IMG/VR virus record: IMGVR_UViG_3300005336_000457
Coordinates: 1-20,480 of that record
DNA length: 20,480 nt
Origin: a virus
Direction: 5' to 3' (one strand)
The notes beneath the pieces are model-generated. The model searched no databases. It had not been told where the DNA came from and saw only the letters and a list, made by a program, of their open reading frames with translations. Made by a program: the position numbers and the translations under genes. Position 1 is the stretch's first letter. Every line of letters begins with the position of its first letter. This document shows positions 377 to 18,108 of this stretch, piece by piece.

Positions 377-637
377 ATGGCTGAAGTTCTGGACAGTTAC
401 CAGTTCCGCGACCCGAGCCCGCCCAGCAGCGTCCGCTACCCGTGGGACGAGTGGACCAACGGCCAAGTCTGGGAGCTACGGCGCGGGGTGGATTTCGATA
501 TTGAGTTGCGTGATATGGCCCGGGAGTTCCGGCGAGCCGCGGCCAAGCGCGGCAAGCGAGCCCGCACCGCCCGGGTGGCGGCCGTAGGTCTGGTAGTCGT
601 TCAGGCGATCCCCGGGTTGCACGGTGGGCCGCAATGA
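377..637 (+). CDS. Small hypothetical phage protein with YPWDEWTNGQVWEL motif
   Basis: An 86-residue protein with no recognised domain. The centre carries an aromatic block, YPWDEWTNGQVWELRRGVDFD (around residues 21-41), followed by a basic stretch rich in R and K (residues 47-66). From memory, small proteins with a similar W-D-E-W...G-x-V-W core and a basic helix occur in actinophages and actinobacterial mobile elements; their function is unknown to me and nucleic-acid binding is only a guess. The start has no Shine-Dalgarno sequence, but a TAGGAT -10 box sits 6 nt before the ATG, so a leaderless transcript is likely. The stop overlaps the next start (ATGA, 634-637), so it is coupled to the lyase gene. 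Confidence 0.75.
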   Translation: MAEVLDSYQFRDPSPPSSVRYPWDEWTNGQVWELRRGVDFDIELRDMAREFRRAAAKRGKRARTARVAAVGLVVVQAIPGLHGGPQ

Positions 638-2181
638 CCACCATCGCCGAGATCTGGTCCGACCATGGGCGCACCGTCAGGTGGCACCGGTTGTGGATCG
701 AGCACCTGAAGCTGCAAGGCGCCGATCCCAAGGCCATCGATAGCTACCAGCGGGTAGCCGACGCTTACGCCGACAGCGAGAGCCCGAACGCGATCGACGT
801 GAACACCAGCAACGGCATGCAGATTGCGCGGCACGAGGTGGTCGCTGCGCTGGAAGCGTTCAATCACGCCGCCGGACGGGACGACGCCCACACTGGGCTG
901 GCCAGCTCCGACATCGTCGACGTGACCACCCAGGGTCAGATCGTGGACAGCCTGTGCCTGATCATCGAGCACGCTTGCCATGTCGTCGGGCGGCTGCGTC
1001 AACTGATGGTTGACTACGCCGACACCCGCCTGGTCGCCCGCACCCACGGGCGACCCGCCCAGCTCACGACCTGGGGCCATCGGCAAGCAACAGTGATATC
1101 ACCGTTACTGGATTGGATCGACCGCGCCATCGACGTCGCCCACGGCTACCCGATGAGGCCGCCCAGCGGAGCCGTCGGGACCAGCGCCGACCTCGCTCGG
1201 GTGGTCGGGACCCCCGGAGTCGCCACGAAGGTATCGCGAGATGGTCTGGAAGCTCACACGAGCGTCTCGGAGGGCTCAGAGGGCATTGAGATAGTGCTCG
1301 ACACGTCCAGTCCAGAAGGACCGCGTATCGTGGGTGGCTCGGGGCCACTGGACCGATATGGCGCCGAGCTGTCGGCCCGGTTCGGGTTCAATGACGTGAT
1401 GGACGCCAGCCGGCAGGTGTACCACCGGTCATACGACGTGTACGTCGCGTCGCTATTGAGCGCACTCGCATCAATAGCGCAGACCTGGGCGAACGACCGC
1501 CGGCTGGAGGCGATGTTAGGACTTGGGAACGAGTCGCACCTTACTGAACAGAGCGCGTCGAGTAGCCTGCCGCAGAAGAACAACCCGAGATTCAGTGAGC
1601 GAATCGTCGCTCTGAGTGCAGTTACTCGGAGTCACCTCGGAGCGGTCGCAGAGCTGGCCGGAATGGAGTGGTTCGAAGGTGATGTGAGCACTTCGGCGGC
1701 TCGCAAGCTGGTCCTGCCGGCCATGTTCAGCAATGTCGACGAGATCCTCGCGAACTGGTACTACGTGACCGGTCTGTGGTCTCTCGACGAGGCGGCGCTG
1801 AGGCAAGAGGTCTACCTGTATCGATATGAGTGGGCCAGTGCCGAGATCATGCACCGGCTGATCCTCGGCGGGGTGAGCCGGACTGATGCCCATCGATACC
1901 TGCGCGAGGCGTGGGCGCGGGCGCGGCGGTCGACCAAGACCCAGCGCACGACCGAGGCCGACTGGTTCGAGGTGGCGCTGGGCGCAGTGCTGTCCGATGC
2001 CGCGGTCAGCCCGCATCCCGAGCAGGTCCTCACCCGCGAGTGGCTGCGCGACGTGATTACCGAGATGTTACAGGCCCCGATCGGCAACGTCGCCGATCAG
2101 ATCGACTGGTTGGACCGGCGGACCCACAGCACCGTGCGGCTGGCCCCGGACATCGACTGGGAGCCGTCGATCGCACCCTGA
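634..2181 (+). CDS. Adenylosuccinate/argininosuccinate lyase-superfamily enzyme (PurB-like)
   Basis: A 515-residue member of the aspartase/fumarase superfamily, most like adenylosuccinate lyase. That family cleaves fumarate from succinyl-AMP-type substrates by beta-elimination. Visible motifs are AHTGLASSDIVD (residues 85-96, His86), ARTHGRPAQLTTWGHR (135-150, His138, the usual general-acid histidine segment), a GAVGTSAD segment (179-186), and the superfamily signature SSSLPQKNNP (309-318), including the mobile-loop serines, Lys315 and Asn317. The usual GSSxMPxKxNP is altered at Met to Leu. The catalytic set therefore appears intact. Length is above the roughly 430-480 usual for PurB. The start overlaps the upstream stop by ATGA. 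The middle third seems less uniformly GC-biased in its codons than its neighbours, possibly recent acquisition. The substrate is unknown; a role in nucleotide or DNA-base modification is inference. Confidence 0.85.
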   Translation: MTTIAEIWSDHGRTVRWHRLWIEHLKLQGADPKAIDSYQRVADAYADSESPNAIDVNTSNGMQIARHEVVAALEAFNHAAGRDDAHTGLASSDIVDVTTQGQIVDSLCLIIEHACHVVGRLRQLMVDYADTRLVARTHGRPAQLTTWGHRQATVISPLLDWIDRAIDVAHGYPMRPPSGAVGTSADLARVVGTPGVATKVSRDGLEAHTSVSEGSEGIEIVLDTSSPEGPRIVGGSGPLDRYGAELSARFGFNDVMDASRQVYHRSYDVYVASLLSALASIAQTWANDRRLEAMLGLGNESHLTEQSASSSLPQKNNPRFSERIVALSAVTRSHLGAVAELAGMEWFEGDVSTSAARKLVLPAMFSNVDEILANWYYVTGLWSLDEAALRQEVYLYRYEWASAEIMHRLILGGVSRTDAHRYLREAWARARRSTKTQRTTEADWFEVALGAVLSDAAVSPHPEQVLTREWLRDVITEMLQAPIGNVADQIDWLDRRTHSTVRLAPDIDWEPSIAP

Positions 2182-2231: not shown

Positions 2232-2708
2232 ATGACCAGGACAATACGTGGGGTGTTGGCGCTACTGGTAGCACTTGGGCTGCTGCTGGTGCCGACCGCG
2301 GCCAGCGCCGCCCGACCGGGCGACGCCCTGCTGCCCCCGGTGCCGGGCTGCCAGGAGCGGACCTCGACCCAATCCGACCCCGGCCCGTGGCGCTACAACT
2401 ATCTGGAGGACTGGTGGGTCGCCGGCAGCTACCGGATCTCGGCCAACTGCGCGGGTCACAACGTGACGGCGTACAGCGACGGGTGGCGGTTCGAGGGCAG
2501 CGAGTGCGGGCAGATGTGGGTTCGCCGACAGCGTTCGGACGGGACAACCTACATCTTGCCCGGATCGGTGAAGCATGTGTGCGGGGGTCAGACGGTGGTG
2601 TTGGCGTCCAGTCAGCCGGTCAACGCCCGGATCTGGATCGAGGCGTGGCAGTACGACGCGGCGGACCGTCGACCCGGTCTGTGGTGGGTCGGCACGATCC
2701 GGTTCTGA
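2232..2708 (+). CDS. Secreted protein of unknown function
   Basis: A 158-residue protein with a clear Sec signal peptide: basic MTRTIR, a hydrophobic core of L, V and A, then a TAASA-A cleavage site near residue 26. The mature part (about 132 residues) contains four cysteines (in GCQE, ANCA, SECG, HVCG) and many Trp and Tyr, suggesting a disulfide-bonded beta-rich extracellular domain. I do not recognise the family. A very strong ribosome site (GAGGAGGAG, 2221-2229) precedes ATG 2232. A weak TTGATG...TATGAG pair (17-bp spacer) in 2182-2220 might be a promoter. It is first of three consecutive exported proteins, so it may share their role. Confidence 0.8.
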   Translation: MTRTIRGVLALLVALGLLLVPTAASAARPGDALLPPVPGCQERTSTQSDPGPWRYNYLEDWWVAGSYRISANCAGHNVTAYSDGWRFEGSECGQMWVRRQRSDGTTYILPGSVKHVCGGQTVVLASSQPVNARIWIEAWQYDAADRRPGLWWVGTIRF

Positions 2709-2715
2709 GATCGAG

Positions 2716-2745
2716 TTGACACTCGACGTGGCACCATGATCTAAT
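2716..2745 (+). promoter_or_regulatory. Promoter with tandem GTGGCAC-type repeats (copy 2)
   Basis: TTGACAC (2716-2722) and GTGGCAC (2728-2734) lie 12 bp apart. TGA plus TCTAAT (2737-2745) forms an extended -10 box. The first repeat also gives a consensus -35 TTGACA with an 18-bp spacer, making this the best sigma-70-type promoter of the window. It drives the secreted protein genes at 2836 and 3249. Confidence 0.75.
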
Positions 2746-2750
2746 GGCCC

Positions 2751-2814
2751 GGGGCCGCCCGCGTTGGGGTTGCGTGATCCAGTTCGCTGCCGGGTCGCGG
2801 CTGCGGGCGGCCCC
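2751..2814 (+). promoter_or_regulatory. Long-range 12-bp leader hairpin
   Basis: GGGGCCGCCCGC (2751-2762) is perfectly complementary to GCGGGCGGCCCC (2803-2814), with a 40-nt loop. It starts about six bases after the -10 box, so it would form at the extreme 5' end of the transcript and end one base before the conserved leader element and ribosome site. There is no T-run, so it is more likely an mRNA 5' stabiliser or translational control structure than a terminator. Confidence 0.55.
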
Positions 2815-2828
2815 CCCTACAGAGAGGG
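2815..2828 (+). promoter_or_regulatory. Conserved leader/ribosome-binding element CCCTACAGAGAGGG
   Basis: This 14-mer recurs exactly at 12649-12662 before the lipoprotein gene, in both cases 7 nt before the ATG. GAGAGGG is the ribosome-binding part. It decides the start of the secreted gene as ATG 2836 rather than any upstream codon. Confidence 0.65.
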
Positions 2829-2835
2829 GACAGGC

Positions 2836-3237
2836 ATGTGGGTGAGGCGAAAGGTCGCCGTCCTGGTCGCGGCTGTTGTGGTCGGGGCGGGCGGCGCGGT
2901 CGCTGTCTCGGCTCCCGCCCAGGCGCACACACAATGGGGCTGCAACCACGGCTCCTCGTGCATCACGACGGGATTCAACGGCGGCGGGAACAGGTTCACC
3001 GTCATCTGGTCGGCGTGGACCAAGAATGAGTGCCACAACCTGCCGTCCAACTTCCGGAACAACACCGCATCAGCGGTGTCGGACTTCGGGTCCGGGTGGG
3101 ACATGATCTGGTATCAGGACCTGAACTGCAACGACTTCTTTGGTGGGGACCGGTTCAACTCACCCGGCCAGGTCAACTTCAACGGGGTGTACTGGTACCT
3201 GGAAGACGACGTCGAGTCGTTCAAGATCGTGCAGTGA
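2836..3237 (+). CDS. Secreted small protein, likely beta/gamma-crystallin or I36-like fold
   Basis: A 133-residue precursor. The signal peptide (MWVRRK, hydrophobic core, APAQA-H cleavage near residue 30) is followed by a roughly 103-residue mature domain with four cysteines, rich in Gly, Asn, Phe and Trp. Segments such as ECHNLPSNFRNNTASAVSDFG and WYQDLNCNDFF match the layout of the neighbouring I36-like protein (CYNVPSSANDRATSYVN, VYRNANCSG). This suggests a diverged paralogue with a Greek-key beta fold. ATG 2836 is chosen because the signal peptide begins there and GAGAGGGG lies just upstream. It has its own promoter at 2716-2745. Function, such as protease inhibition or cell-surface binding outside the host, is inference. 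Confidence 0.75.
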   Translation: MWVRRKVAVLVAAVVVGAGGAVAVSAPAQAHTQWGCNHGSSCITTGFNGGGNRFTVIWSAWTKNECHNLPSNFRNNTASAVSDFGSGWDMIWYQDLNCNDFFGGDRFNSPGQVNFNGVYWYLEDDVESFKIVQ

Positions 3238-3248
3238 GGGGGGGATAC

Positions 3249-3722
3249 ATGAAGCAGGTCCGTGCAGCCGTCGTCGTCTTGCTCGTCGCGCTCGGCATTA
3301 CGTTCACCGCTGTCACCCCCGCACATGCGGCCTACACCGACTGTCCGCTGAACTTCGTGTGCCTGTTCCTCAATCGCGACGGCGGTGGCGGGTACATCGT
3401 CAACATCTATCAGGCGCCTGGAACGTGCTACAACGTGCCATCCAGTGCGAACGACCGCGCCACCTCCTACGTGAACCGCCTGTCCAGTACGAGGAGCATG
3501 CAGGTATACCGCAACGCCAACTGCTCGGGGCATGCGCTGCACAAGGACAACGGATTCGGCGGCTCGACTCAGCCGTTCCCATCGTCCAACGCGCCGTACC
3601 CCACGAACGTGAATGGGTCGGGCAACTTCATCAACATCGACAACCTGGTGTTACCCGGCTGCAGTCTTCCCGATCACTGTGACAACGACATCGCCACCTC
3701 GATCTGGTTCAACAACGTCTAA
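3249..3722 (+). CDS. Secreted peptidase inhibitor family I36-like protein
   Basis: A 157-residue precursor with a signal peptide (MKQVR, hydrophobic core, TPAHA-A near residue 27). The mature part begins with a CPLNFVCLFLNRDGGGG segment, then CYNVPSSANDRATSYVNR, VYRNANCSGHAL, and near the end a DNDIATSIWFN repeat of the ND-x-x-(T/S)S motif. These are the recurring signatures of the I36/SMPI-type beta/gamma-crystallin fold known from Streptomyces metalloprotease inhibitors. The ribosome site GAGGGGGG ends about 4 nt before ATG 3249, and the gene follows its neighbour by 11 nt, so they are co-transcribed. Whether it inhibits a protease is not shown; many I36 relatives have no tested activity. 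A phage carrying it is unusual. Confidence 0.8.
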   Translation: MKQVRAAVVVLLVALGITFTAVTPAHAAYTDCPLNFVCLFLNRDGGGGYIVNIYQAPGTCYNVPSSANDRATSYVNRLSSTRSMQVYRNANCSGHALHKDNGFGGSTQPFPSSNAPYPTNVNGSGNFINIDNLVLPGCSLPDHCDNDIATSIWFNNV

Positions 3723-3733
3723 ACCGGCAAGCT

Positions 3734-3789
3734 CCGGGCCTGGCGACAAGACGGAAGCACCGCAGCCACGTGGTGGTCGCCAGGCCCGG
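3734..3789 (+). terminator. Perfect 14-bp inverted repeat after the secreted-protein genes
   Basis: CCGGGCCTGGCGAC (3734-3747) pairs exactly with GTCGCCAGGCCCGG (3776-3789) across a 28-nt loop, 11 nt after the stop of the I36-like gene. No U-tract follows. I infer a factor-independent-like or processing hairpin. No promoter is evident between it and the operon beginning at 3825, so at least partial read-through would be needed. Confidence 0.5.
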
Positions 3790-4004: not shown

Positions 4005-4171
4005 GTTCACCACGGCCGAACTGGGGAGCATGGGAGCGCGAATCGACCGCCGAGCATCCAGAGCACGTGGCGTGGGACCTGCCCGATAAGCCCCAATGGC
4101 CCGCAGTGCTCGGCGCGTTGGTGATGTTGATCGCGTTGGCCGGCCTGGTCGCCCTGGTGATCGTCAAGTGA
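4001..4171 (+). CDS. Small single-pass membrane protein
   Basis: A 56-residue protein. A polar, Trp-rich N-terminal half (residues 1-33) is followed by one hydrophobic helix (about residues 34-55, VLGALVMLIALAGLVALVIV) ending in a single lysine. ATG 4001 overlaps the previous stop, and its own stop overlaps the GTG of the glycosyltransferase (4168). Such a C-terminally anchored peptide could tether the following enzymes to the membrane, but that is speculation. No family is recognised. Confidence 0.75.
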   Translation: MSSPRPNWGAWERESTAEHPEHVAWDLPDKPQWPAVLGALVMLIALAGLVALVIVK

Positions 4172-5022
4172 GCAAGCCGCTGCTGAGCATCCTGTGTCCG
4201 ACCCGGCGCAGGCCCGGCCAGGTGCTGGCGCTGATCGACACCGCGATCAAGACCGCCGCCCACCCGGAGCGACTGCAGTTCGTGTTCTATGTTGACGGGG
4301 ACGACCCGACCCGGGCCGAGGTCCAGAACCTGAAGTTGGACGCGCCAGGCCGCCCGATCATCGTGATCACCGGCCCCCGGGTGGTCCTGTCGCAGATGTG
4401 GAACGAGTGTTACGCGCAGGCGCAGGCCGATGTGCTGATGCAGTGCGGGGACGACATCCGGTTCCGGACCCGCGGCTGGGACACCAAGGTGTTGAGCCAG
4501 TTCCTGCGCTACCCGGACCGGATCGTACTGGTACACGGACAGGACGGGATCCAGGGCGACCGGGTCGCCACCCACGGGTTCCTGCACCGCCGCTGGGTCG
4601 AGGTGGTCGGCTACTTCGTCCCGCCGATCTTCGCCAGCGACTACAACGACATGTGGTTGACCGAGGTGGCCGATCTGCTCCAACGGCGGATCTATCTGCC
4701 GGACGTCTACACCGAGCACATGCACCCAGTAGCCGGGAAAGGCCCGTTGGACCGCACCCACCAGGAGCGGCTGAACCGGCACAACGTCGAGAACTGCGAC
4801 CGGCTCTGGCGCGACACTGCGGCCGACCGACAGGTCGACGCCGGCAAGCTTCGGGCCTACATCGAGGGGTTTGCCGCGGCCGGTGCGGGTCCGCACCAAG
4901 AAGAAGGAGTAGGGCATGGTCACCGATCTGATCCCCCGTCACCGGGTCAGCTGGCGCAAGGTGGGCAGAGGAAGTCACGCCCACGCGGTGATGCTGGTCG
5001 AGAACAACCGGCTGGCGTTTGA
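4168..5022 (+). CDS. Glycosyltransferase, GT2-like (GT-A fold); possible frameshift at the 3' end
   Basis: A 284-residue reading. The N-terminus LLSILCPTRRRP followed by FVFYVDGDDP (residues 39-47) is the nucleotide-binding start of GT-A enzymes. MQCGDDIRF (91-99, Asp95-Asp96) is the DxD-like metal/sugar-nucleotide site, and YTEHMHP (181-187) can supply the late metal ligand. It should transfer a sugar from a nucleotide-sugar donor; the acceptor is unknown. GTG 4168 overlaps the preceding stop. The last 43 residues look unlike protein (PHQEEGVGHGHR...) and overlap the next gene by 107 nt. A one-base frame change near 4885-4890 would instead give ...AGAVRTKKKE ending at 4912, just before the next start. 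The true end is therefore probably 4912. Confidence 0.85.
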   Translation: MSKPLLSILCPTRRRPGQVLALIDTAIKTAAHPERLQFVFYVDGDDPTRAEVQNLKLDAPGRPIIVITGPRVVLSQMWNECYAQAQADVLMQCGDDIRFRTRGWDTKVLSQFLRYPDRIVLVHGQDGIQGDRVATHGFLHRRWVEVVGYFVPPIFASDYNDMWLTEVADLLQRRIYLPDVYTEHMHPVAGKGPLDRTHQERLNRHNVENCDRLWRDTAADRQVDAGKLRAYIEGFAAAGAGPHQEEGVGHGHRSDPPSPGQLAQGGQRKSRPRGDAGREQPAGV

Positions 5023-5137
5023 GACGCTGTGCGGGCGCCCCTCGGCCGGCTCGAAGTACGCGCCGCATCTGATCGAGTGTGGCAAGTGCGCGGAGCAGCT
5101 TGAACCGCTGGTGCGTCCCGATCGGATCCCTGCGTGA
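4916..5137 (+). CDS. Small zinc-ribbon-like protein
   Basis: A 73-residue protein with a SHAHAV segment, TLCGR and IECGKCAEQL. The spacing (His-x-His, Cys-Gly-Arg, then Cys-x-x-Cys) is typical of short zinc-binding proteins common in actinophages. GAAGGAG (4903-4909) stands 6 nt before ATG 4916, a good ribosome site. The stop overlaps the next gene's GTG (GTGA at 5134-5137). The start falls inside the annotated end of the upstream glycosyltransferase, which supports an earlier true end of that gene. Function unknown. Confidence 0.7.
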   Translation: MVTDLIPRHRVSWRKVGRGSHAHAVMLVENNRLAFETLCGRPSAGSKYAPHLIECGKCAEQLEPLVRPDRIPA

Positions 5138-5841
5138 CCCAGCAGCCGTTGTGGACGATCCTGGTGCCGACGATCGGTCGGCGCCGGGACAAGTTCCGCC
5201 GACTGGTGATCGAACTGCTGGCCCAGGCCGAGCCTCGGGTTGGTCAGGTGCGGGTGCTGGCCTACTACAACCAGGGCGAGCGGCCACTGAGCGAGATCCG
5301 CCAGGCGTTGGTCGAAGCGGCGACCGGGACCTATGTCAGCTTTGTCGACGATGATGACTGGGTGCCGGACTACTACGTGCAGCAGGTCCGGACCGCGATC
5401 CACGAGTGGGCGGCAGCACATGCCGTGCCGCCCGGTGTGTCGGTGATCGGCTCGAAGTGGCCCGACCAGGTTGGTTGGCGGATGCAGCACTACTCGGACG
5501 GGCATCCGTCTAAGCCGACCTACCACAGCCTGCAATATGGAAGCTGGCACGAGGATGACAAAGGCTACTATCGGGACATCTCTCACCTCAACCCCGTACG
5601 CCGGAATCTGGCCCTACGCGTTGATTTTCGACGGGGTGATCCGCCCGAGGACGTGGCCTGGACCGTTCAAATGCGTGGACACGTGCGCACCGAGGCCCGC
5701 ATCCCGGACGAGTACGTGATGTACCACTATTACAGCAGTGGCGACTCGACCTGGCGACCGGGCTCGGTCAAGCACGACGGCGGAACGCGTCCCGAGATCT
5801 CGCATCCACTGTTCGATTGGCACCCGGATAGCACGCCGTGA
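5134..5841 (+). CDS. Glycosyltransferase, GT2 family-like (GT-A fold)
   Basis: A 235-residue protein. WTILVPTIGRRRDKF (residues 7-21) is the first beta-strand and nucleotide-binding loop. SEIRQALVEAATGTYVSFVDDDDWV (53-77) contains the acidic DDDD site (72-75) expected to bind the metal and the donor diphosphate. The middle has many Trp, His and Tyr (for example YGSWHEDDKGYY), likely the acceptor side, and PPEDVAW may carry the catalytic acid. Length is short for GT2, with no membrane helices, so it is a soluble cytoplasmic transferase. GTG 5134 and the stop both overlap neighbours by 4 nt. Donor and acceptor are unknown. Confidence 0.85.
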   Translation: MTQQPLWTILVPTIGRRRDKFRRLVIELLAQAEPRVGQVRVLAYYNQGERPLSEIRQALVEAATGTYVSFVDDDDWVPDYYVQQVRTAIHEWAAAHAVPPGVSVIGSKWPDQVGWRMQHYSDGHPSKPTYHSLQYGSWHEDDKGYYRDISHLNPVRRNLALRVDFRRGDPPEDVAWTVQMRGHVRTEARIPDEYVMYHYYSSGDSTWRPGSVKHDGGTRPEISHPLFDWHPDSTP

Positions 5842-6206
5842 CTTATGCAAAGAAACCCCGACCGGAGCGTCCGGTACACCCAGTGGTGGTCCAACTGATC
5901 CAGGCCCGGCATTATCGCGACTGGTCCCGGCTGATGCTGGCCCGCCGGACTGGTGTCAGTGCCGGCACGATCGGCCAGATGGAGTCGGGGTTGAAGGTTC
6001 CGCTGCTGACCACTGTGGCCGACGTCGCTCAGGCCCTGGACCTTCAGATCTGCGCCGTGCCGGTCGGAGCGGTGACCGATGACGCCTTGAGGCGATCTTA
6101 TCGGGCTGGGTTTGATGCGGGGGTGGCCCACGGCCGTGGCGAGGGGCGGCGGCCCGCGCATGCTCCGATCAACCGTGAGCGCGCGATCGTCCTAGGCGAG
6201 GCGTGA
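5838..6206 (+). CDS. XRE/Cro-type helix-turn-helix regulator
   Basis: A 122-residue protein. Residues 16-66 form a standard five-helix HTH_XRE domain: WSRLMLARRTGVSAGTIGQMESG with the recognition helix SAGTIGQMESGLKVP, then LTTVADVAQALDL. The C-terminal half (RRSYRAGFDAGVAHGRGEGRR) is Gly- and Arg-rich. It is likely a DNA-binding transcription factor. Its position inside the glycosylation operon, with 4-nt overlaps on both sides, suggests it controls this or other phage operons. The repeated GTGGCAC promoter element is an obvious but untested candidate target. Confidence 0.85.
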   Translation: MTYAKKPRPERPVHPVVVQLIQARHYRDWSRLMLARRTGVSAGTIGQMESGLKVPLLTTVADVAQALDLQICAVPVGAVTDDALRRSYRAGFDAGVAHGRGEGRRPAHAPINRERAIVLGEA

Positions 6207-6394
6207 CTGTGATCCGTCTATTCCTGCGCTTCCAGACCTGGTGGAACCGGTTGGGCTGCCTCCACCATTGGCACTCGGCGGACGCGATGATCCTGTGGCG
6301 CTGCTGCTACTGCCACAAGGATGCCGACGGCCATCCGGTCGACCGGACCGAGATCTGCCTCTATGAGTGGGCTAGTTGGGGGCAACCGCTATGA
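6203..6394 (+). CDS. Small His/Cys-rich protein, possible zinc finger
   Basis: A 63-residue protein: an N-terminal amphipathic stretch (TVIRLFLRFQTWWNRL), then GCLHHWHS and WRCCYCHKDADG, which together provide Cys and His ligands for a small zinc site, and a short acidic/aromatic end. GTG 6203 and the stop at 6392-6394 overlap both neighbours. The family is not recognised. It belongs to the set of small metal-binding-like proteins scattered through this operon. Confidence 0.65.
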   Translation: MTVIRLFLRFQTWWNRLGCLHHWHSADAMILWRCCYCHKDADGHPVDRTEICLYEWASWGQPL

Positions 6395-7410
6395 CCAGGG
6401 TTCTACTGACCGGCGCGGGCGGCTTTGTCGGGTCCCACGTCCTGGAGGTGCTGTTGGCCAGCACCGATTGGGACATCGTTGTCGTCGACAGCTTCCGGCA
6501 CAACGGCGGCACCGATCGGACCGCGGAGGCGATGGCGACCGGGCGGGGGGTCATGGGCCGCGCGACGTTCCTGGCCCACGACCTGGTCGCCCCGTTCAGC
6601 CCGCGCCAGCTCGACCAGATCGGCAAGTTGGACTACATCGTCCATGTGGCCAGTCGCTGCTCAGTCACCGAGAGCATCGATGACCCGGCTGACTTCGTAC
6701 GCAACAACGTCGACTCGACGCTGACCGTGCTGGAGCTAGCCCGGCATCTGTGGTGCTGGGACGGACAGGATGTGAAGCTGTTCGACCACCGGCTGGTGCA
6801 CCTGTCCACCGATGAGGTGCACGGGCCGGAGCCGGATCTGCCCGACCGGGCACCTGAGCACCGCCCGTCCAGTCCCTACGCCGCGTCGAAGGCGGCGCAG
6901 GAGGACCTGGTCCACGCCTGGCACCGAACCTACGGGATCCCGTCGACGGTGGTCACCAGCGCGAACATGTTCGGGGAGCGCCAGAGTCTGCTCGCCTTCG
7001 TCCCGAAAGTGATCGGGGCGGTACTGCACGGCCTGCAGTTGCCGATCCACACCTGGCACGGGCAGCCGGGCAATCGGCGCTACACCTATGTGCGCAATAC
7101 GGCCCAGGCGATCGTGAACCACCTGAGGGCGAGCGGGAACGGCTGGCCGGGTCGTCCGGCGCACCGGGTCGTGCGGGTCCCGCTGCCCGGTCAGCACCGG
7201 ATCGATAACCTGGAGTTGGCGCAGCGGATCGCCGGGGTGGTCGGTCAGCCGCTGCGCTACCAACTGGTAGACGGATCGGCGGTCCGGCCAGGTTACGATC
7301 GGGACTACTCGCCGCTGGGGGGCGATCCCGACTGGGCCGGGGTGAGCTTTGCCGAGGGGCTGGAGCGCACCGTAAAGTGGTACGTTGATCATCCGGAGTG
7401 GCTACAGTGA
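6391..7410 (+). CDS. NAD-dependent epimerase/dehydratase, dTDP-glucose 4,6-dehydratase-like
   Basis: A 339-residue extended short-chain dehydrogenase. TGAGGFVG (residues 7-14) is the NAD-binding TGxxGxxG, followed by VVVDSF. Catalytic features are STDEVHG (139-145; RmlB enzymes have STDEVYG, with the Asp-Glu pair acting in 4,6-dehydration) and YAASK (Tyr163, Lys167). HVASRCSVTESIDDP matches the RmlB HLAAESHVDRSI region but has Arg-Cys in place of Glu-Ser. It probably oxidises C4 of a nucleotide sugar and dehydrates or epimerises it. The start is ATG 6391, overlapping the upstream stop (ATGA). With the dehydrogenase at 9474 it would supply an unusual sugar to the glycosyltransferases. Confidence 0.9.
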   Translation: MTRVLLTGAGGFVGSHVLEVLLASTDWDIVVVDSFRHNGGTDRTAEAMATGRGVMGRATFLAHDLVAPFSPRQLDQIGKLDYIVHVASRCSVTESIDDPADFVRNNVDSTLTVLELARHLWCWDGQDVKLFDHRLVHLSTDEVHGPEPDLPDRAPEHRPSSPYAASKAAQEDLVHAWHRTYGIPSTVVTSANMFGERQSLLAFVPKVIGAVLHGLQLPIHTWHGQPGNRRYTYVRNTAQAIVNHLRASGNGWPGRPAHRVVRVPLPGQHRIDNLELAQRIAGVVGQPLRYQLVDGSAVRPGYDRDYSPLGGDPDWAGVSFAEGLERTVKWYVDHPEWLQ

Positions 7411-7420
7411 GGAGACCGAC

Positions 7421-7627
7421 ATGACTGAGCCGACCACGCCTGAGAATGGCTGTTGCTCCCCCTGCGCGCAGCATTCCAACCCGCCCGGCGCGTGTCTGGA
7501 CTGCGGGCACTGCCACCCATGCCACATCGCCCGGGACTTCCCGCCCGGCGCCCCGGTGTTGGGTGAGCACCCGGTGCCGATCAAGATCGGGATCCGCGAC
7601 GCCCAGGTCTTCCACCTCGCGACGTGA
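7421..7627 (+). CDS. Small cysteine-rich putative metal-binding protein
   Basis: A 68-residue protein with two cysteine clusters, CCSPC (residues 11-15) and CLDCGHCHPCH (25-35), making seven Cys and several His in 25 residues, then a 30-residue Pro-rich tail. It resembles a double zinc knuckle or treble-clef-like element, though I do not recognise the family. The start is ATG 7421 with GAGGAGA (7409-7415) upstream. The stop overlaps the methyltransferase GTG (7624). It may be a partner subunit of a neighbouring enzyme; that is inference. Confidence 0.7.
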   Translation: MTEPTTPENGCCSPCAQHSNPPGACLDCGHCHPCHIARDFPPGAPVLGEHPVPIKIGIRDAQVFHLAT

Positions 7628-8196
7628 CCTCCCAAGACCTGGCCGGCTACGACGTGGCCTACTACCAGCGGGACGCGCCGGAGTTCTGGTTCGCCCGGCA
7701 TGGCTTGCCCCGACCAGACCAGCTCGCGGCGATCTGCTATACGCTCGGGGTGCCGTTCTGGGGTTCGGAGCCGTATGCTCCGCGCGACCCTGGGCGGGTG
7801 CTGTCGGTCGGCTGCGGGGCAGGTCAGCTGGAGGTGACCCTGGAAGGCATGGGACTCACAGTGACTGGGGTCGACCCGTCGCTTGGGGCGTTGGAGCTTT
7901 ATCGCGGCGGGATGCTGGTGGGCGAGGCCAGGCAGGCTCTGGTGGCCAGCGCCGGGACGGTGATCTACAACGAGTCGATCGAGCATATCCCGGTCGAGCA
8001 GACTCTGCAGGTGCGCTCTTGGATGGCGCCCGGTTCGCGGCTGATCGTGACCAACTGGCCGGACTTCCACCCGATCGAGCCGACCAGCGACTGGGACCAC
8101 ATCACCCGAGTCGACGACGCGCTATATGACCGGCTGGCGCGGGGCGGCCAAGTGGTGCTGCGCCGCGGCTCGCACCTGGTGGTGGATGTTGGGTAG
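7624..8196 (+). CDS. SAM-dependent methyltransferase (class I)
   Basis: A 190-residue Rossmann-fold methyltransferase. Motif I is VLSVGCGAG (residues 59-67), and VTGVDPS (80-86) supplies the acidic residue (Asp84) that binds the SAM ribose. IYNESIEHIP and MAPGSRLIVTNWP are the post-I/IV and V regions of the Methyltransf_11/23 type. The N-terminal YDVAYYQRDAPEFW may cover the substrate. The likely substrate is a sugar or sugar-linked intermediate given the operon, but nothing in the sequence proves it. GTG 7624 overlaps the previous stop; the 3' end overlaps the next gene by 11 nt. Confidence 0.85.
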   Translation: MTSQDLAGYDVAYYQRDAPEFWFARHGLPRPDQLAAICYTLGVPFWGSEPYAPRDPGRVLSVGCGAGQLEVTLEGMGLTVTGVDPSLGALELYRGGMLVGEARQALVASAGTVIYNESIEHIPVEQTLQVRSWMAPGSRLIVTNWPDFHPIEPTSDWDHITRVDDALYDRLARGGQVVLRRGSHLVVDVG

Positions 8197-8746
8197 CCGG
8201 GGGTTCGAGCTGGCAGCCGGTCTGGAGTACCAGCCGGGCGAGGTAATCCTGGAGGTCGGGGCGGACCGCGACGAGGGTTCGACCCCGTTCCTGGCCGGGA
8301 TCGGCCCACCGGTTGTGGTGGTTGACGTCGACCGGGGGGCATGCGATCGGGTCCGCGGCCTGGGCGGCGTGGTCGCTCTACATGGGCTGGCTGAGCAGGT
8401 ACTGGTCGGGTTCCCCAATCCGATCAGGTTCGCCTGGCTGGATGGGCACGACTGGCCATACGAGGGTCCGGAGTACCCGCCGGGCTGTTGGGACGAACAG
8501 GAGCGCCAATACCGCGACCGGGGGCAAGACTACTCGCAGGCGGCCAGCCAGGCGTCCCACCTGCGGATCGCCGAGCTGATCGCCTATCATGTCGCGCCGG
8601 GCGGGATTATCGCGTTCGACGACACCTGGTTGGGCACCCACGGTTGGGACGGCAAAGGCGGCACCGCGATCCCGCATCTGCTCGGCCGAGGTTTTATCCC
8701 AGAGGTCCATGCTGACCGGTGCGTCACCCTGCAGAGGCCGATGTGA
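8186..8746 (+). CDS. SAM-dependent methyltransferase-like protein (Methyltransf_24-like)
   Basis: A 186-residue protein. ILEVGADRDEGST (residues 21-33) resembles SAM motif I with the inserted acidic segment seen in Methyltransf_24/FkbM-type enzymes. VVVVDVD (43-49) is the ribose-binding strand, FAWLDGHDWPYEG the WIDGxH-like metal/substrate motif, and GGIIAFDDTW the following strand and acidic pair. These suggest an O-methyltransferase, perhaps of a sugar. The start is taken as ATG 8186, inside the previous gene. The stop overlaps GTG 8743. The upstream enzyme belongs to a different subfamily, so two distinct methylations are possible. Confidence 0.75.
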   Translation: MLGSRGFELAAGLEYQPGEVILEVGADRDEGSTPFLAGIGPPVVVVDVDRGACDRVRGLGGVVALHGLAEQVLVGFPNPIRFAWLDGHDWPYEGPEYPPGCWDEQERQYRDRGQDYSQAASQASHLRIAELIAYHVAPGGIIAFDDTWLGTHGWDGKGGTAIPHLLGRGFIPEVHADRCVTLQRPM

Positions 8747-9477
8747 TCGAGCCCCTGGTCAGTGTCTTGCTGCCCACCCGCGGCCGGCCGCAGGCGCTGC
8801 GCGAATCAGTCGGATCCCTGTTCGAGACGGCCGGTGATCGCAACGCGTTCGAGGTGCTGTACGCGGTTGACGCGGACGATCAGGAGGACACCCTGACGGT
8901 AGTCGACCAGATGATGCTGGACGGGGGGCGACACCGGGTCAAGATCTTTCAAGAGCGTCACGGTTACGCCAATCTGCACGAGTACGTCAACTACCTCGCG
9001 GGCAGGCCATATGGCTGGGCCGGCCCGGCCGGCGACTGGCTGATGCTCTGGAACGACGACGCGATCATGCAGACCTATGGCTGGGACTGGCGGATCCGCG
9101 AGCTGCCCTGCCGGTTCATCCTGGACACCTGGACCAATCATCCGACCCTGACCTGTACTTTCCCGATCGTGCCACGCGCCTGGGTCGAGACGATCGGGCA
9201 TTTCAGCCTCAACGCCCATTGCGACACTTGGTGGCAGTTGATCGGCGAGTGGACCCACCGGCTGGTCCGGGCTGACATCGACGTACAGCACAACCGGTTC
9301 GACTTGACTGGCCAAAACCACGATCTGACCTACGAACAAGGTCGGCTGCAACACCAGACCATCTCGTTTTACAGCGCCGCGACTACAGAATTGATCAAGC
9401 AGGATGCTAGCGTGGTGATGGGTCTGGTGGAGGCCCAGCGCAACCGGCGCCTACAGGGAAGGACCGACTGGGAGTGA
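8743..9477 (+). CDS. Glycosyltransferase, GT2-like (GT-A fold)
   Basis: A 244-residue protein. LVSVLLPTRGRPQALRESVGSL (residues 5-26) and VLYAVDADD (38-46) form the nucleotide-binding half. GDWLMLWNDDAIM (97-109, Asp105-Asp106) is the DxD-like site, and the sequence around YGWDWRI resembles RGWDTK at the same place in the enzyme at 4168, so the two are probably paralogues. The late HNRFDLTG and NHDLTY segments may supply a metal-ligand histidine. GTG 8743 overlaps the previous stop and the 3' end overlaps the dehydrogenase GTG. Donor and acceptor are unknown. Confidence 0.85.
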   Translation: MIEPLVSVLLPTRGRPQALRESVGSLFETAGDRNAFEVLYAVDADDQEDTLTVVDQMMLDGGRHRVKIFQERHGYANLHEYVNYLAGRPYGWAGPAGDWLMLWNDDAIMQTYGWDWRIRELPCRFILDTWTNHPTLTCTFPIVPRAWVETIGHFSLNAHCDTWWQLIGEWTHRLVRADIDVQHNRFDLTGQNHDLTYEQGRLQHQTISFYSAATTELIKQDASVVMGLVEAQRNRRLQGRTDWE

Positions 9478-10754
9478 AGATCGGGTGGCTGGGCCTGGGT
9501 CGTCTCGGACTGCCGTGTGCGTTGATGCTGGCCGACCGCGGGCACGAGGTGATCGGGCTGGATGCGGTCGAGGCTGTGAACAAGGCGATCGACACTCGCA
9601 ACCTGGGTGAGCTGCCCTACGTGGAGCCCGGGGTGCAGGACCTGATCAATAAGGTCGGGTCCGACGGGTCGGCGGGGTTCCGGGTGGCTTTCAGCCTGCG
9701 CGAGCTGGTCGAGCAGTCCGATGTGGTGTTCGTCGCGGTGCAGACCCCGCACGCGCCCGAATACGGCGGCACGGTGCCGGTGTCGACCAGCACCCGTGAC
9801 TTCGAGTACGGCTACCTGGTCCAGGCTGTGCGCGAGGTCGTGCAGGTGGCGGATGCCCTGGACCGGGATCTGGTGCTGGTGATCGTCTCGACCGTCCTGC
9901 CGGGCACGACCGACCGGCTGATCCGGCCGCTGCTGAGCCGCCGGGTCGCCCTGGTCTACAGCCCGCAGTTCATTGCCATGGGCACGACGCTGCGCGACTT
10001 CGCCAACCCGGAGTTCCTGCTGCTCGGGTCGGACGACCACACTGCCGCGGGGCTGGTCGCCCAGGTCTTCCAGAAGGTGCACACCGCGGCGCCGATGATC
10101 TGCTCAGTCGCCGACGCCGAGATGGCGAAGGTCGCCTACAACACGTTCATCAGCCTCAAGATTGTCTGGGCGAACCACCTGGCCGCGCTGTGCGACGCGA
10201 CCGGGGCGGACGCCGACGCGGTGGTCGATGTACTACAGCGGGCCAGCGTGCGGGTCACCTCGTCGGCCTATATGCGGCCGGGGATGGGTGACGGCGGGGC
10301 CTGCCACCCGCGCGATCTGATTGCGCTGGCTGATCTGGAGGCCCGATCAGACACTCCGGTGACGTTCTTCCACGGCCTGGCGCTGATCCGGGACGAGCAG
10401 AGCCTGGCGCTGGCCCACCTGGTCAAGCGCTGGGCGGATCAGGCTCGGTTGCCGGTATGCCTGCTGGGGCTGGCTTACAAGCCGGGAGTACCACTGACCG
10501 ACGGCTCGCCGGCCCTGTTGCTGCGCCACCATCTGCAGTCGCTTGGCGTCCAGGCGGAGCCGTTCGACCCGCACGTGCAGCATCAATGGGCGCGCAACCT
10601 GCCGCCGACCCCCCGGGTGTTCGTGGTCTCGACCAACCACCCGGAGTTCCACGGGCTGAAGTTCCCGAGCGGCTCGGTGGTGATCGATCCGTGGGGCGAC
10701 GTGAAGCTGCCCCCCGACTCCGGGGTGACCCTGGTGCGGCCGGGCCGTCGATAG
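9474..10754 (+). CDS. UDP-glucose/GDP-mannose dehydrogenase family enzyme
   Basis: A 426-residue protein of normal family length. The N-terminal NAD domain has GLGRLGLP (residues 7-14) and VIGLD. STVLPGTT matches STVxPGTT, YSPQFIAMGTT takes the place of the family's NPEFLREG, and EMAKVAYNTFISLKIVWANH matches the central helix with the conserved Lys and Asn. The catalytic loop GDGGACHPRDL contains Cys277, the nucleophile for two-step oxidation of the sugar C6 alcohol to a carboxylate. LGLAYKPGVPLTDGSPA is the C-terminal nucleotide-sugar domain motif. It should make a UDP- or GDP-linked uronic acid for the neighbouring glycosyltransferases. Which sugar cannot be read from sequence. The start GTG 9474 overlaps the previous stop. 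Confidence 0.9.
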   Translation: MKIGWLGLGRLGLPCALMLADRGHEVIGLDAVEAVNKAIDTRNLGELPYVEPGVQDLINKVGSDGSAGFRVAFSLRELVEQSDVVFVAVQTPHAPEYGGTVPVSTSTRDFEYGYLVQAVREVVQVADALDRDLVLVIVSTVLPGTTDRLIRPLLSRRVALVYSPQFIAMGTTLRDFANPEFLLLGSDDHTAAGLVAQVFQKVHTAAPMICSVADAEMAKVAYNTFISLKIVWANHLAALCDATGADADAVVDVLQRASVRVTSSAYMRPGMGDGGACHPRDLIALADLEARSDTPVTFFHGLALIRDEQSLALAHLVKRWADQARLPVCLLGLAYKPGVPLTDGSPALLLRHHLQSLGVQAEPFDPHVQHQWARNLPPTPRVFVVSTNHPEFHGLKFPSGSVVIDPWGDVKLPPDSGVTLVRPGRR

Positions 10755-10771
10755 GGGAGGGGAGACCGAGG

Positions 10772-10942
10772 ATGGACAAGCAGGAACAGCCGCTGCCGGT
10801 GCTGTCGCGGGTGGCGCTACGGCGTTTCCGACAGGCGCTGGACCAGATCGATCCTGTGGATGCGGAGCGTCTCACCGCGCGGATCATCGCCCGCGATCGC
10901 AAGCCGCGGGTCGAGGTCGCGCGGTTCGGATCGGCGATCTGA
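10772..10942 (+). CDS. Small basic hypothetical protein
   Basis: A 56-residue, Arg-rich, predicted helical protein (LSRVALRRFRQALDQIDPVDAERLTARIIARDRK). There is no signal peptide or recognised domain. A strong purine-rich ribosome site (AGGGGAGGGGAG, 10753-10764) precedes ATG 10772. It sits between the dehydrogenase and the fourth glycosyltransferase, whose GTG starts 9 nt after its stop. It could be an adaptor of these enzymes; function unknown. Confidence 0.65.
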   Translation: MDKQEQPLPVLSRVALRRFRQALDQIDPVDAERLTARIIARDRKPRVEVARFGSAI

Positions 10943-10951
10943 GGCTGACCG

Positions 10952-11623
10952 GTGGTCTTCCGACGCGATGTGACCGTAGTGATCCCGACCCACCCGGGCC
11001 GGGATCCGGCGATGCTACAGCAGGCGGTCCACTCGGCCACCACCCAGGACGAGCCGCCGGAAGCGGTGATCGCCGTCTTCGACAAGGAGCGCCGAGGGGC
11101 GGCCTGGACCCGCAACGAGGCGCTGAAGAGCGTCCGGACCCACTGGGTGGCGTTCTTGGATAGCGACGACTGGCTGTACCCGCAGCACCTGCGGGTGCTG
11201 CTGGACGCGGCGCAGCAGTCGGGCGCCGACCTGGTCTACCCGTATTTCGACACCGATGGGCCGGACGTGCTGTGCACCAGCCAGTACGGCAAGATCGTGT
11301 CCCCCGAAGGCGTGCCGTTCGGGCCGGAGCAGGAGCGCTGGCTGCGCCATCGGGGCGGGTTCATCCCGATTACCCACCTGTGCCGGGCCGACCGGGTCAA
11401 GAAGGCTGGCGGATTCCCAGCCCAGGGCAAGTTCGCCGTCCCGGAGGGCAACGTCTCCGGTGACTGCGAGGACTACGGGATGTTGATCCGTCTGCTGGAC
11501 CGCGGCGCCCGGTTCCACCATGTTGCGGAGCGCACCTGGTTCTACCGCCAGCACGGCGACAACACCGGGGGTCGCCGGGGTGGGCGGACGGAGTTCGAGA
11601 AGGCAGCATATGGCCAGCAGTGA
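10952..11623 (+). CDS. Glycosyltransferase family 2 protein
   Basis: A 223-residue protein and the most canonical GT2 of the four. VTVVIPTHPGRDP (residues 7-19), AWTRNEALKSVRTHWVAFLDSDDW (51-74) with the DSDD metal/donor site (70-73), a VYPYFDTDG segment, and SGDCEDYGMLIRLLDRG near residue 170, where the ED pair matches the catalytic base region of GT2 enzymes. It ends without membrane helices, hence cytoplasmic. GTG 10952 has GAGG at 10941-10944. The next promoter overlaps its stop codon, marking the 3' end of the operon. Confidence 0.9.
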   Translation: MVFRRDVTVVIPTHPGRDPAMLQQAVHSATTQDEPPEAVIAVFDKERRGAAWTRNEALKSVRTHWVAFLDSDDWLYPQHLRVLLDAAQQSGADLVYPYFDTDGPDVLCTSQYGKIVSPEGVPFGPEQERWLRHRGGFIPITHLCRADRVKKAGGFPAQGKFAVPEGNVSGDCEDYGMLIRLLDRGARFHHVAERTWFYRQHGDNTGGRRGGRTEFEKAAYGQQ

Positions 11624-12559: not shown

Positions 12560-12600
12560 CCCACGACGCCCCCCCGGCAGCGACAGCCGGGGGGGCGTCG
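12560..12600 (+). terminator. Perfect 17-bp stem-loop
   Basis: CACGACGCCCCCCCGGC (12560-12576), a 7-nt loop, and GCCGGGGGGGCGTCGTG (12584-12600). The stem is perfect and starts 9 nt after the stop of the 12192 gene. Only CTGTCTCG follows, so there is no clear U-tract, but the stability and placement between a stop and the next promoter support termination. Confidence 0.75.
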
Positions 12601-12609
12601 TGCTGTCTC

Positions 12610-12638
12610 GTGGCACCTTGGGTGGCACATGCTACAAT
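12610..12638 (+). promoter_or_regulatory. Promoter with tandem GTGGCAC repeats (copy 5)
   Basis: GTGGCAC at 12610-12616 and 12622-12628 (identical, 12 bp apart). TGC plus TACAAT (12630-12638) is a near-consensus extended -10 box. With the first heptamer as -35 the spacer is 17 bp. It drives the lipoprotein gene at 12670. Confidence 0.8.
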
Positions 12639-12648
12639 GGAGTGCACA

Positions 12649-12662
12649 CCCTACAGAGAGGG
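12649..12662 (+). promoter_or_regulatory. Conserved leader/ribosome-binding element (second copy)
   Basis: An exact repeat of the 14-mer at 2815-2828 (CCCTACAGAGAGGG), again 7 nt before the ATG. It is the ribosome-binding site of the lipoprotein gene. The related CCAGAGAGGAG precedes the 12192 gene. Confidence 0.65.
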
Positions 12663-12669
12663 ACCCACG

Positions 12670-13296
12670 ATGAAGAGGCTTATCGCGACGACCCTGGCTG
12701 GGCTCGCCGCCCTGGTGGCGTTCACCGGCTGCAGCTCGGCCAACAACCTGGTCGCCGACGCTATGCGGGCGCTCGGTGCCACGCCGGGGACCATCTACAA
12801 CTACGGCGCGGACGGGCAGGTCGTGTATGAGGCACACTGCCGCAGCCTGGACTTCCAGCGCGACATCGAGTTCGACCGGTACAACGCCGACGGCAAGAAG
12901 ATCGAGGACTCCTCGGTCGTGGAGATCTCCTGCGGCAACAGCATCATCAAGACCGTCGGGTTCACGACCGTCTACATCTCCGACGACGCGCGGGGCGCGC
13001 TGTTCGCCAACTCGCAGCAGTTCGCCGACCTGCGGATCAAGAACAACGATCGCGGTGTGCCCCTGGTCAACTTCGCCTGGCGCGCAGTCAAAGACCGGTT
13101 CGTCGGCACCAAGCGGGTGGCCCAGGTCTGCGACCAGAACAACAACCCGATCCTGGCTTTCGCCGGCAAGATTGTCGGGTTCGGCACCGACGTGGACAAG
13201 TCCACGATGTTCCAGGTGGACTACAGCGGCCACGTCGGGTACGTCTGGGTCTCGCGCGGGTCGTACACCGTCACCGACACGGCCCTGCTCGGATAG
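12670..13296 (+). CDS. Putative lipoprotein, independently transcribed
   Basis: A 208-residue precursor with a lipoprotein signal peptide: MKRL, a hydrophobic segment, and AFTGC, with Cys21 as the probable lipidated residue (Phe instead of Leu at -3). The mature protein begins with a short Ser/Asn linker, then a roughly 80-residue beta-rich region (IYNYGADGQVV..., DSSVVEISCGNSIIKTVGFTTVYISDD) which, from memory, resembles DUF5052-type lipoproteins; this is not certain. The C-terminal half has VCDQNNNPILAFAGKIVGF and ends in beta-rich sequence. It should sit on the outer face of the cell membrane. It has its own promoter and terminator; phage lipoproteins of this layout often block superinfection, which is inference here. 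Confidence 0.8.
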   Translation: MKRLIATTLAGLAALVAFTGCSSANNLVADAMRALGATPGTIYNYGADGQVVYEAHCRSLDFQRDIEFDRYNADGKKIEDSSVVEISCGNSIIKTVGFTTVYISDDARGALFANSQQFADLRIKNNDRGVPLVNFAWRAVKDRFVGTKRVAQVCDQNNNPILAFAGKIVGFGTDVDKSTMFQVDYSGHVGYVWVSRGSYTVTDTALLG

Positions 13297-13307
13297 GGTG
13301 CACCAGT

Positions 13308-13339
13308 CACCGCCCCCTGGGTTCGCCCGGGGGGCGGTG
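13308..13339. terminator. 14-bp stem with TTCG tetraloop, probably bidirectional
   Basis: CACCGCCCCCTGGG (13308-13321), TTCG loop (13322-13325), CCCGGGGGGCGGTG (13326-13339), with one wobble pair. It lies 11 nt after the lipoprotein stop and 13 nt after the end of the minus-strand gene at 13353, so it can terminate both converging transcripts. Confidence 0.75.
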
Positions 13340-13352
13340 GCATATCTGCGGC

Positions 13353-13493
13353 CTACAGCCGGCCGACCAAGCTGACCGCGACCCAGCAGGCGAGGCCAGC
13401 AGCGATCAAGGTGCGGCGCGGGTCGGACCGCCAGGACCAAGCGGCGGCGATGATGAACAGCACCAACGCCGCGACCAACAGGACCAGTTCCAT
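13353..13493 (-). CDS. Small two-helix membrane protein on the minus strand
   Basis: Reading the minus strand from ATG at 13493 gives 46 residues ending at TAG: MELVLLVAALVLFIIAAAW, then a basic turn (SWRSDPRRT), then LIAAGLACWVAVSLVGRL. This is a compact hairpin of two hydrophobic helices with a cytoplasm-type basic loop, a layout common for tiny actinobacterial and phage membrane proteins. No strong ribosome site is visible. It is the only minus-strand protein I support in the window. It fills the gap between a terminator and the divergent small-terminase gene. A holin-like or regulatory role is possible but unproven. Confidence 0.6.
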   Translation of the reverse strand: MELVLLVAALVLFIIAAAWSWRSDPRRTLIAAGLACWVAVSLVGRL

Positions 13494-13535: not shown

Positions 13536-14174
13536 GTGACACCTGACGAGCGACGTACGGCAGCGCGGCGCCTGCACGCCGAAGGTCACAGCTATGCCGA
13601 GATTGCTCGCATCTTGAAGGTCGCGCCCACAACGGCCAAGAAATATTGTCATGGCCTCGGCCTACCAGACAACCCGGCCAGTCGTCGGGGGGCACAGGAA
13701 GTCGCCCAGAGCCCCAAGGTGAACGAGGCCCGCCGCGCGGAGAAGGTGACGCGCATATTCCAGATGCGCCTGGAGGGCATGACCGTCAAGCAGATCGCCG
13801 CCCAGGAACATATGTCTTGGACGACCGTGCGGGCGATGATCGACGAGGAGATCGAAAGCCGGGTCAGCCCGAAGGTGGAGAGGCAACGCGAACTGGCCAA
13901 CGCCCGCCTGGACGAGATGAGTGTAAGGGTGTGGGAGGTTCTGCGCGGCACCGACAGCGCAGAACTGCGCCTGAAGGCGGTCGACCGGCTGCTACAAATC
14001 GAACGGCGACGGGCAGCCAACAATGGCTCGGACAGCCCGGTCCGGGTGGAGGCGGTCTACACCGAGATCACCCAAGAGGACATGGAGATCGCCGAGCTGA
14101 TTCGGGAGGCGCAGGTGCGCAACCAGATCATCGAGGGGCAGGTTGTCGATGACGCAGACGCTACCCCCGAGTGA
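13536..14174 (+). CDS. terS: Small terminase subunit (putative)
   Basis: A 212-residue protein directly upstream of the large terminase and overlapping it. The N-terminus has a helix-turn-helix (RRLHAEGHSYAEIARILKVAPTTAKKY, residues 10-36) and a second one follows (RLEGMTVKQIAAQEHMSWTTVRAMIDEEI, about 81-109), then a long helical region (SPKVERQRELANARLDEMSVRVWEVL) suited to oligomerisation, and an acidic C-terminus. This is the usual order in small terminases: DNA recognition, ring-forming helices, and a tail that contacts the motor. The start GTG 13536 lies 6 nt after a -10 box, with no ribosome site. A transcriptional regulator is the alternative, but position argues for packaging. Confidence 0.75.
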   Translation: MTPDERRTAARRLHAEGHSYAEIARILKVAPTTAKKYCHGLGLPDNPASRRGAQEVAQSPKVNEARRAEKVTRIFQMRLEGMTVKQIAAQEHMSWTTVRAMIDEEIESRVSPKVERQRELANARLDEMSVRVWEVLRGTDSAELRLKAVDRLLQIERRRAANNGSDSPVRVEAVYTEITQEDMEIAELIREAQVRNQIIEGQVVDDADATPE

Positions 14175-18103: not shown

Positions 18104-18108
18104 CAGTG

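What the first reader, a model, noticed from the sequence alone, without database searches (positions are those of the whole stretch)
2232..3722. Three consecutive exported proteins, including I36 inhibitor-like ones, in a phage
All three have clean signal peptides and cysteine-containing beta-rich mature domains; the last matches the peptidase inhibitor I36 (beta/gamma-crystallin) pattern and the second looks related. Phages rarely export such proteins. They could protect the infected cell or virions from secreted proteases, act on competing bacteria, or modify the lysogen's surroundings.
Basis: partly seen in the sequence, partly recalled or inferred. Interest (0 to 1): 0.65.

Follow-up and report, generated by a model that had tools for sequence, protein, structure and literature searches.

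The report
Actinophage-exported crystallin-like small proteins
A virus of (probably) actinobacteria carries three genes for small secreted proteins, two of them related to a bacterial family that includes a protease inhibitor and eye-lens-like calcium-binding proteins; relatives of this virus carry other secreted proteins, so it is an unusual member of a recurring theme whose function is untested.

Summary
Three consecutive genes (2232-2708, 2836-3237, 3249-3722, +) have ribosome-binding sites and Sec signal peptides. The third (P3) is a clear Pfam Inhibitor_I36 member (E 1.9e-10), scoring higher than the founding inhibitor SMPI. The second (P2) is a divergent relative: no Pfam hit, but it matches P3 and an I36 profile along its length. 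The first (P1) is unrelated and unplaced. The phage setting is real: flanking PurB-like and terminase genes are syntenic in related phages. I36 is absent from 60 related records, so the trio is accessory. P3 carries two canonical beta/gamma-crystallin Ca2+ motifs (NDRATS, NDIATS) and lacks SMPI's two-cysteine reactive loop, so 'I36' here means family, not shown inhibition. Perfect hairpins flank P2-P3; a second exported gene (DUF5052 lipoprotein) has the same anatomy, as expected of independently transcribed 'morons'. I36 is rare in phages (one other found), but exported proteins are common in this clade (ricin-type lectin, GDSL esterase, lipoproteins). The nearest long relatives have no detectable integrase, so a lysogen role is unsupported. 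Best reading: exported accessory crystallin-like binding proteins acting outside the infected cell. Structure predictions failed; function is inferred only.

The parts
2232..2708 (+). P1: exported 158-aa protein, 4 Cys in the mature part, no known family; signal peptide 2232-2309
   Evidence: no Pfam/PHROG/NCBIfam/PADLOC hit of note; no relative in phages, plasmids or viral contigs
2716..2745 (+). possible promoter: exact TTGACA (2716-2721), 18-nt spacer, TGA-TCTAAT (-10 at 2740-2745)
   Evidence: seen by eye; not reported by the consensus scan because the -10 lacks A at position 2; weak
2751..2814 (.). inverted repeat between P1 and P2: 12-bp perfect arms, 40-nt loop; terminator of P1 or 5' leader hairpin of P2
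   Evidence: RNA folding energy not exceptional (z -1.25)
2836..3237 (+). P2: exported 133-aa divergent I36/beta-gamma-crystallin-like protein, 4 Cys, degenerate motifs NNTASA and DDVESF; signal peptide 2836-2925
3249..3722 (+). P3: exported 157-aa Inhibitor_I36 protein, 6 Cys in the mature part, motifs NDRATS and NDIATS; signal peptide 3249-3329
3734..3789 (.). hairpin 12 nt after the P3 stop: 14-bp perfect stem with a nested stem; terminator-like, no T run
   Evidence: (z -4.17)
12562..12602 (.). 17-bp perfect hairpin upstream of the second exported gene
12670..13296 (+). second exported gene of the window: DUF5052 lipoprotein (signal ending LVAFTGC), 69% identical to one in relative G006
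13308..13339 (.). 14-nt inverted repeat (93%), 4-nt loop, 11 nt after the lipoprotein stop; terminator-like

Best explanation
The three genes are an accessory, host-directed export cassette ('moron'-type) in a tailed phage of an actinobacterium. P2 and P3 are most likely tandem paralogues, each a single secreted beta/gamma-crystallin-type (I36) domain held by disulphides, P3 also by Ca2+. They leave the infected cell through Sec and act outside it as stable binding proteins. My best single guess for the target is a secreted or envelope-bound protease of the host (about 0.3); close behind, masking of a cell-surface polymer or receptor (about 0.3). Shown here: gene anatomy, phage context, P3's family, P2's distant relationship, flanking hairpins, absence from relatives. 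Inferred: export, independent transcription, fold, Ca2+ binding, target.
For: I36 membership of P3; full-length match of P2; both canonical Ca2+ motifs in P3 (motif definition in PMC8639718); the family profile matches solved Ca2+-binding microbial crystallins, clostrillin and spherulin 3a. Accessory status: flanking PurB-like gene and terminase are syntenic in G003 and G006, but the trio is absent. Own-unit anatomy: the only three perfect stems of 12 bp or more (loop up to 60) in 20 kb flank exported genes, against 0.15 expected. In related phages, exported genes are more often followed by a strong hairpin (13/40 against 211/1445, p 0.005). Clade-mates export other extracellular-type proteins.
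Against: No expression, secretion or binding data. Structure predictions failed. No sequence relatives of P1. The promoter is weak, and the P1-P2 hairpin is not exceptional by folding energy. The hairpin enrichment test was devised after seeing the data, and the exported set contains some doubtful calls. Intergenic space is scarce in the window, so hairpins have few other places to lie.
Confidence: 0.6

Rival explanations
1. P3 (and perhaps P2) are SMPI-like inhibitors of secreted metalloproteases, protecting newly made virions, phage-exported proteins or the host envelope from host or neighbour proteases.
For: P3 scores higher against Pfam I36 than SMPI itself does (40.9 against 26.0 bits). 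Actinobacteria secrete many proteases (established knowledge).
Against: SMPI's reactive loop (the C-V-R-F-P-C stretch) is not conserved: only one of its two cysteines aligns in P3. The Ca2+ motifs of P3 are absent from SMPI. Most I36 members are named from the family, not from assays (own knowledge).
Confidence: 0.25
2. The exported proteins bind the host cell wall or surface glycans and block further phage adsorption or injection (superinfection exclusion).
For: A DUF5052 lipoprotein sits in the same genome with the same hairpin anatomy. Relative G006 exports a ricin-type lectin. Phage lipoproteins with this role are known elsewhere (own knowledge).
Against: P2 and P3 have no lipobox or wall anchor; no binding site is recognisable.
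Confidence: 0.25
3. They are antibacterial or antifungal beta/gamma-crystallin proteins (like the killer-toxin-like proteins of Streptomyces) that harm competitors of the infected mycelium.
For: Same general fold class and secretion (own knowledge).
Against: No linked immunity gene was recognised; no sequence match to such proteins was found.
Confidence: 0.1
4. They are virion proteins with a hydrophobic N-terminus.
For: They lie in a phage genome, on the same strand as the structural genes.
Against: They lie 10 kb upstream of the terminase, were not found in any relative, and have classic A-x-A signal peptides and multiple cysteines.
Confidence: 0.06
5. The contig is chimeric and the trio is host DNA.
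For: I36 proteins occur on Streptomyces plasmids.
Against: The PurB-like gene on one side and the DUF5052 gene and terminase on the other are shared with related phages in the same order. No bacterial match close enough to be a source was found.
Confidence: 0.03

Closest known systems
Pfam PF03995 Inhibitor_I36 / SMPI (PDB 1bhu)
   Same: P3 is over the family cut-off; N-terminal C-P-x(4)-C, small secreted protein, spaced cysteines
   Different: no two-cysteine reactive loop; Ca2+ motifs in both halves; longer C-terminal half with two extra cysteines; inhibition untested
Microbial Ca2+-binding beta/gamma-crystallins (clostrillin, spherulin 3a, M-crystallin)
   Same: two half-motifs N/D-N/D-x-x-S/T-S in P3; the I36 profile that includes P3 matches them
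   Different: exported and cysteine-rich; P3 or P2 alone do not reach these structures by sequence
Streptomyces plasmid 'peptidase inhibitor family I36 protein' (e.g. WP_326615290.1)
   Same: signal-peptide-like N-terminus; about 34-36% identical to P3 over 67 residues
   Different: in the plasmid loci read here, single genes without P1- or P2-like neighbours; not in phages
I36 protein of phage record L111 (IMGVR_UViG_2872980847_000001)
   Same: I36 protein in a phage genome, both Ca2+ motifs intact (NDRASS, NDSLSS)
   Different: a different phage; no signal peptide at its apparent start
Phage morons
   Same: accessory gene unit, flanked by hairpins, absent from relatives
   Different: promoter not demonstrated; the nearest long relatives lack a detectable integrase, so the lysogenic expression that morons are known for is unproven

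Membership tests
Pfam PF03995 Inhibitor_I36 | profile score above the curated cut-off (P3) | tested here: met
   P3: 40.9 bits against cut-off 21.1
Pfam PF03995 Inhibitor_I36 | profile score above the curated cut-off (P2) | tested here: not met
   no Pfam match; supported only by similarity to P3 and a custom profile, so P2 is a distant relative, not a filed member
SMPI-type metalloprotease inhibitor | reactive loop closed by two cysteines | tested here: not met
   only one of the two cysteines aligns in P3
SMPI-type metalloprotease inhibitor | inhibits a metalloprotease | not testable with these tools
   needs an enzyme assay
Ca2+-binding beta/gamma-crystallin | N/D-N/D-x-x-S/T-S in both halves | tested here: met
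   P3: NDRATS and NDIATS; two or more in 0.26% of shuffles. P2 has only degenerate forms (NNTASA, DDVESF)
Ca2+-binding beta/gamma-crystallin | double Greek-key fold | tested here: inconclusive
   AlphaFold2 with a 2-sequence alignment gave pLDDT 38
Moron cassette | accessory gene between conserved phage genes, absent from relatives | tested here: met
Moron cassette | own promoter and terminator | tested here: inconclusive
   hairpin after P3 strong, promoter weak
Moron cassette | expressed in the lysogen | not testable with these tools
   no integrase in the longest near relatives; lifestyle of this phage unknown

The most novel reading that the evidence does not exclude
A clade of actinophages carries a swappable 'secretome' of independently transcribed exported proteins (crystallin-like I36 pair, lectin, esterase, lipoproteins) that remodels the outside of the infected mycelium, even in phages that may not lysogenise; the I36 pair would be a phage-made extracellular inhibitor or shield.
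Probability: 0.2. Interest if true: 0.65.

Novelty: new member of a known kind. Interest (0 to 1): 0.36.

Why it matters
If true, it would show that phages of filamentous actinobacteria routinely spend genes on proteins that work outside the infected cell. That makes sense in a multicellular mycelium, where an infected compartment has living kin next to it. It would also give a small, testable example of a phage-borne I36/beta-gamma-crystallin protein, a family whose bacterial members are mostly named as protease inhibitors without assays.

Tried and rejected
Close relatives of P1, P2 and P3 in viral contigs, phage records (16-18) and, for P3, genome contigs: none. P1 as an I36 protein: rejected (hhalign 1.6%); its PDB matches are weak immunoglobulin-chain matches (best E 0.0015), treated as chance. 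P2's best PDB match (PIT54, E 0.0011) rests on short scattered pieces and was dismissed. Structure prediction for P1 and for the P3/P2 alignment was too poor to use, so no fold search was run. PADLOC: nothing for the trio. Literature: no paper linking I36 and phages in the held library.

Full report
What is there. The window is a whole 20,480-base virus record. On the + strand, between a PurB-like gene (634-2181) and a run of glycosyltransferase-type genes, lie three small genes: P1 2232-2708, P2 2836-3237 and P3 3249-3722. Each starts with a clear ribosome-binding site and a classic Sec signal peptide ending A-x-A (read from the sequence). Third-position GC is 0.83-0.87, as in the phage's other genes, so all three look like real coding genes.

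Phage context. The terminase (14149-15792) is 74-79% identical to those of eight other viral contigs and about 48% identical to Streptomyces phages such as Rooney and Gibson. In the two longest near relatives, G003 (80.9 kb) and G006 (73.0 kb), the PurB-like gene (44-46%), a small gene before the terminase, the helix-turn-helix gene, terminase and portal occur in the same order; G003 also has the small gene upstream of PurB. The trio is therefore inside a phage genome. The host is probably an actinobacterium; it was not identified.

Families. P3 matches Pfam Inhibitor_I36 at E 1.9e-10, 40.9 bits. The founding inhibitor SMPI, whose sequence was checked as identical to PDB 1bhu, reaches only 26.0 bits. 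P2 has no Pfam match, but BLAST links it to P3 (27% over 109 residues). A profile made from seven other I36 proteins, without P2 and P3, aligns with P2 from its first cysteine to its last residues. In a stricter test on the mature region, its score of 22.2 was not reached by any of 300 shuffles (mean 11.0, maximum 21.3); the margin over the best shuffle is small. P1 is unrelated to these and has no known family.

Inhibitor or crystallin? Microbial beta/gamma-crystallins bind Ca2+ through N/D-N/D-X1-X2-S/T-S in each Greek key (PMC8639718). P3 has NDRATS and NDIATS, one in each half; two or more such motifs occur in 0.26% of shuffles. P2 keeps degenerate forms (NNTASA, DDVESF). The profile of the I36 set including P3 finds solved Ca2+-binding crystallins (clostrillin group 4.7e-7 to 2.5e-6, spherulin 3a 6.5e-6) but not SMPI. 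SMPI's reactive loop, closed by two cysteines, is not conserved in P3 (the role of the loop is my own knowledge). So the family assignment is firm for P3, and protease inhibition is possible but not indicated by the site itself. Structure prediction was uninformative.

Rarity. None of 10 close and 50 wider related records has an I36 match; many are fragments. One other phage record, L111, has an I36 protein (Pfam 1e-12) with both Ca2+ motifs, lying between a replication-type gene and lysis-type genes, apparently without a signal peptide. Exported proteins in general are not rare in this group: G006 exports a ricin-type lectin (Pfam 7.9e-9), L044 a GDSL esterase (7.2e-22), and several records encode lipoproteins, including a DUF5052 lipoprotein shared by the window and G006.

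Anatomy of the cassette. The window has only three perfect stems of 12 bp or more with loops up to 60 nt; shuffles give 0.15 on average. They lie between P1 and P2 (2751-2814), just after P3 (3734-3789), and before the DUF5052 gene (12562-12602); a near-perfect fourth follows that gene (13308-13339). The hairpin after P3 is strong by folding energy (z -4.17), the one between P1 and P2 is not (z -1.25). Across related phages, genes with a predicted export signal are followed by a stem of 10 bp or more within 120 nt in 13 of 40 cases, against 211 of 1445 others (p 0.005). I chose this test after seeing the pattern, and the signal-peptide heuristic is rough, so it is a lead. A TTGACA box at 2716 with a TGA-TCTAAT box 18 nt on is a possible promoter for P2-P3, but the scan did not list it. 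This fits the 'moron' idea of horizontally acquired, independently transcribed phage genes (PMC6469090).

Lifestyle. No tyrosine integrase or serine recombinase was found in G000, G003 or G006, while several wider relatives have one. G000 is a fragment and the completeness of the other two is unknown. A role in lysogens is therefore open, and action during lytic infection of a mycelium is equally possible.

Mechanism. Step 1, transcription as a separate unit: supported by hairpins, not shown. Step 2, Sec export: supported by signal peptides. Step 3, folding into a disulphide- and, for P3, Ca2+-stabilised crystallin domain: supported by family and motifs. Step 4, binding an extracellular target: inferred; a protease or a surface polymer are the two best guesses, at about 0.3 each. 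P1 is simply a co-located exported protein of unknown type; nothing shows that it works with P2 and P3.

Noticed in passing
window 18106-18474 and 19728-20480; related loci L017, L018, L021, L030: Many different proteins in the structural region share an N-terminal tag of the form W-(D/N)-x(3-5)-H-P-R-(D/N)-x(1-9)-G-(R/Q)-(F/W)-x-(D/E), up to 7 per 20-kb stretch of a relative and, in the records listed, never further inside a protein. It could be a capsid-targeting or prohead-protease signal for internal virion proteins; it deserves its own study.
   Followed up: partly
window 634-2181: PurB-like (adenylosuccinate lyase superfamily) protein conserved in the close relatives (44-46%) but below the curated purB cut-off (TIGR00928, 165.9 against 326.2 bits); no partner PurZ gene was searched for.
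   Followed up: partly
window 4168-11623: Island with glycosyltransferase-type, NAD-dependent epimerase-type, methyltransferase-type and UDP-sugar dehydrogenase-type genes (types judged by eye except the first glycosyltransferase), mostly absent from the nearest relatives; suggests glycan, DNA or virion sugar modification.
   Followed up: no
window 12562-13339: DUF5052 lipoprotein enclosed by two strong hairpins; a candidate superinfection-exclusion lipoprotein, 69% identical to one in G006.
   Followed up: partly
window 19728-20480: Tagged protein with a kinase-like stretch (LLNADRHGGNWVI); relatives carry several paralogues (several matching stretches in L018).
   Followed up: no
L022 7073-7615 (-); L044 4184-4879 (+); L111 1555-2085 (-): Other exported proteins in related or other actinophage-type records: a ricin-type lectin, a GDSL esterase, and an unclassified 176-aa secreted protein.
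   Followed up: partly
window 13353-13493 (-); L017 12679-12825 (-); L021 4067-4216 (-): Tiny membrane-type gene on the opposite strand at the same place before the terminase in relatives.
   Followed up: no
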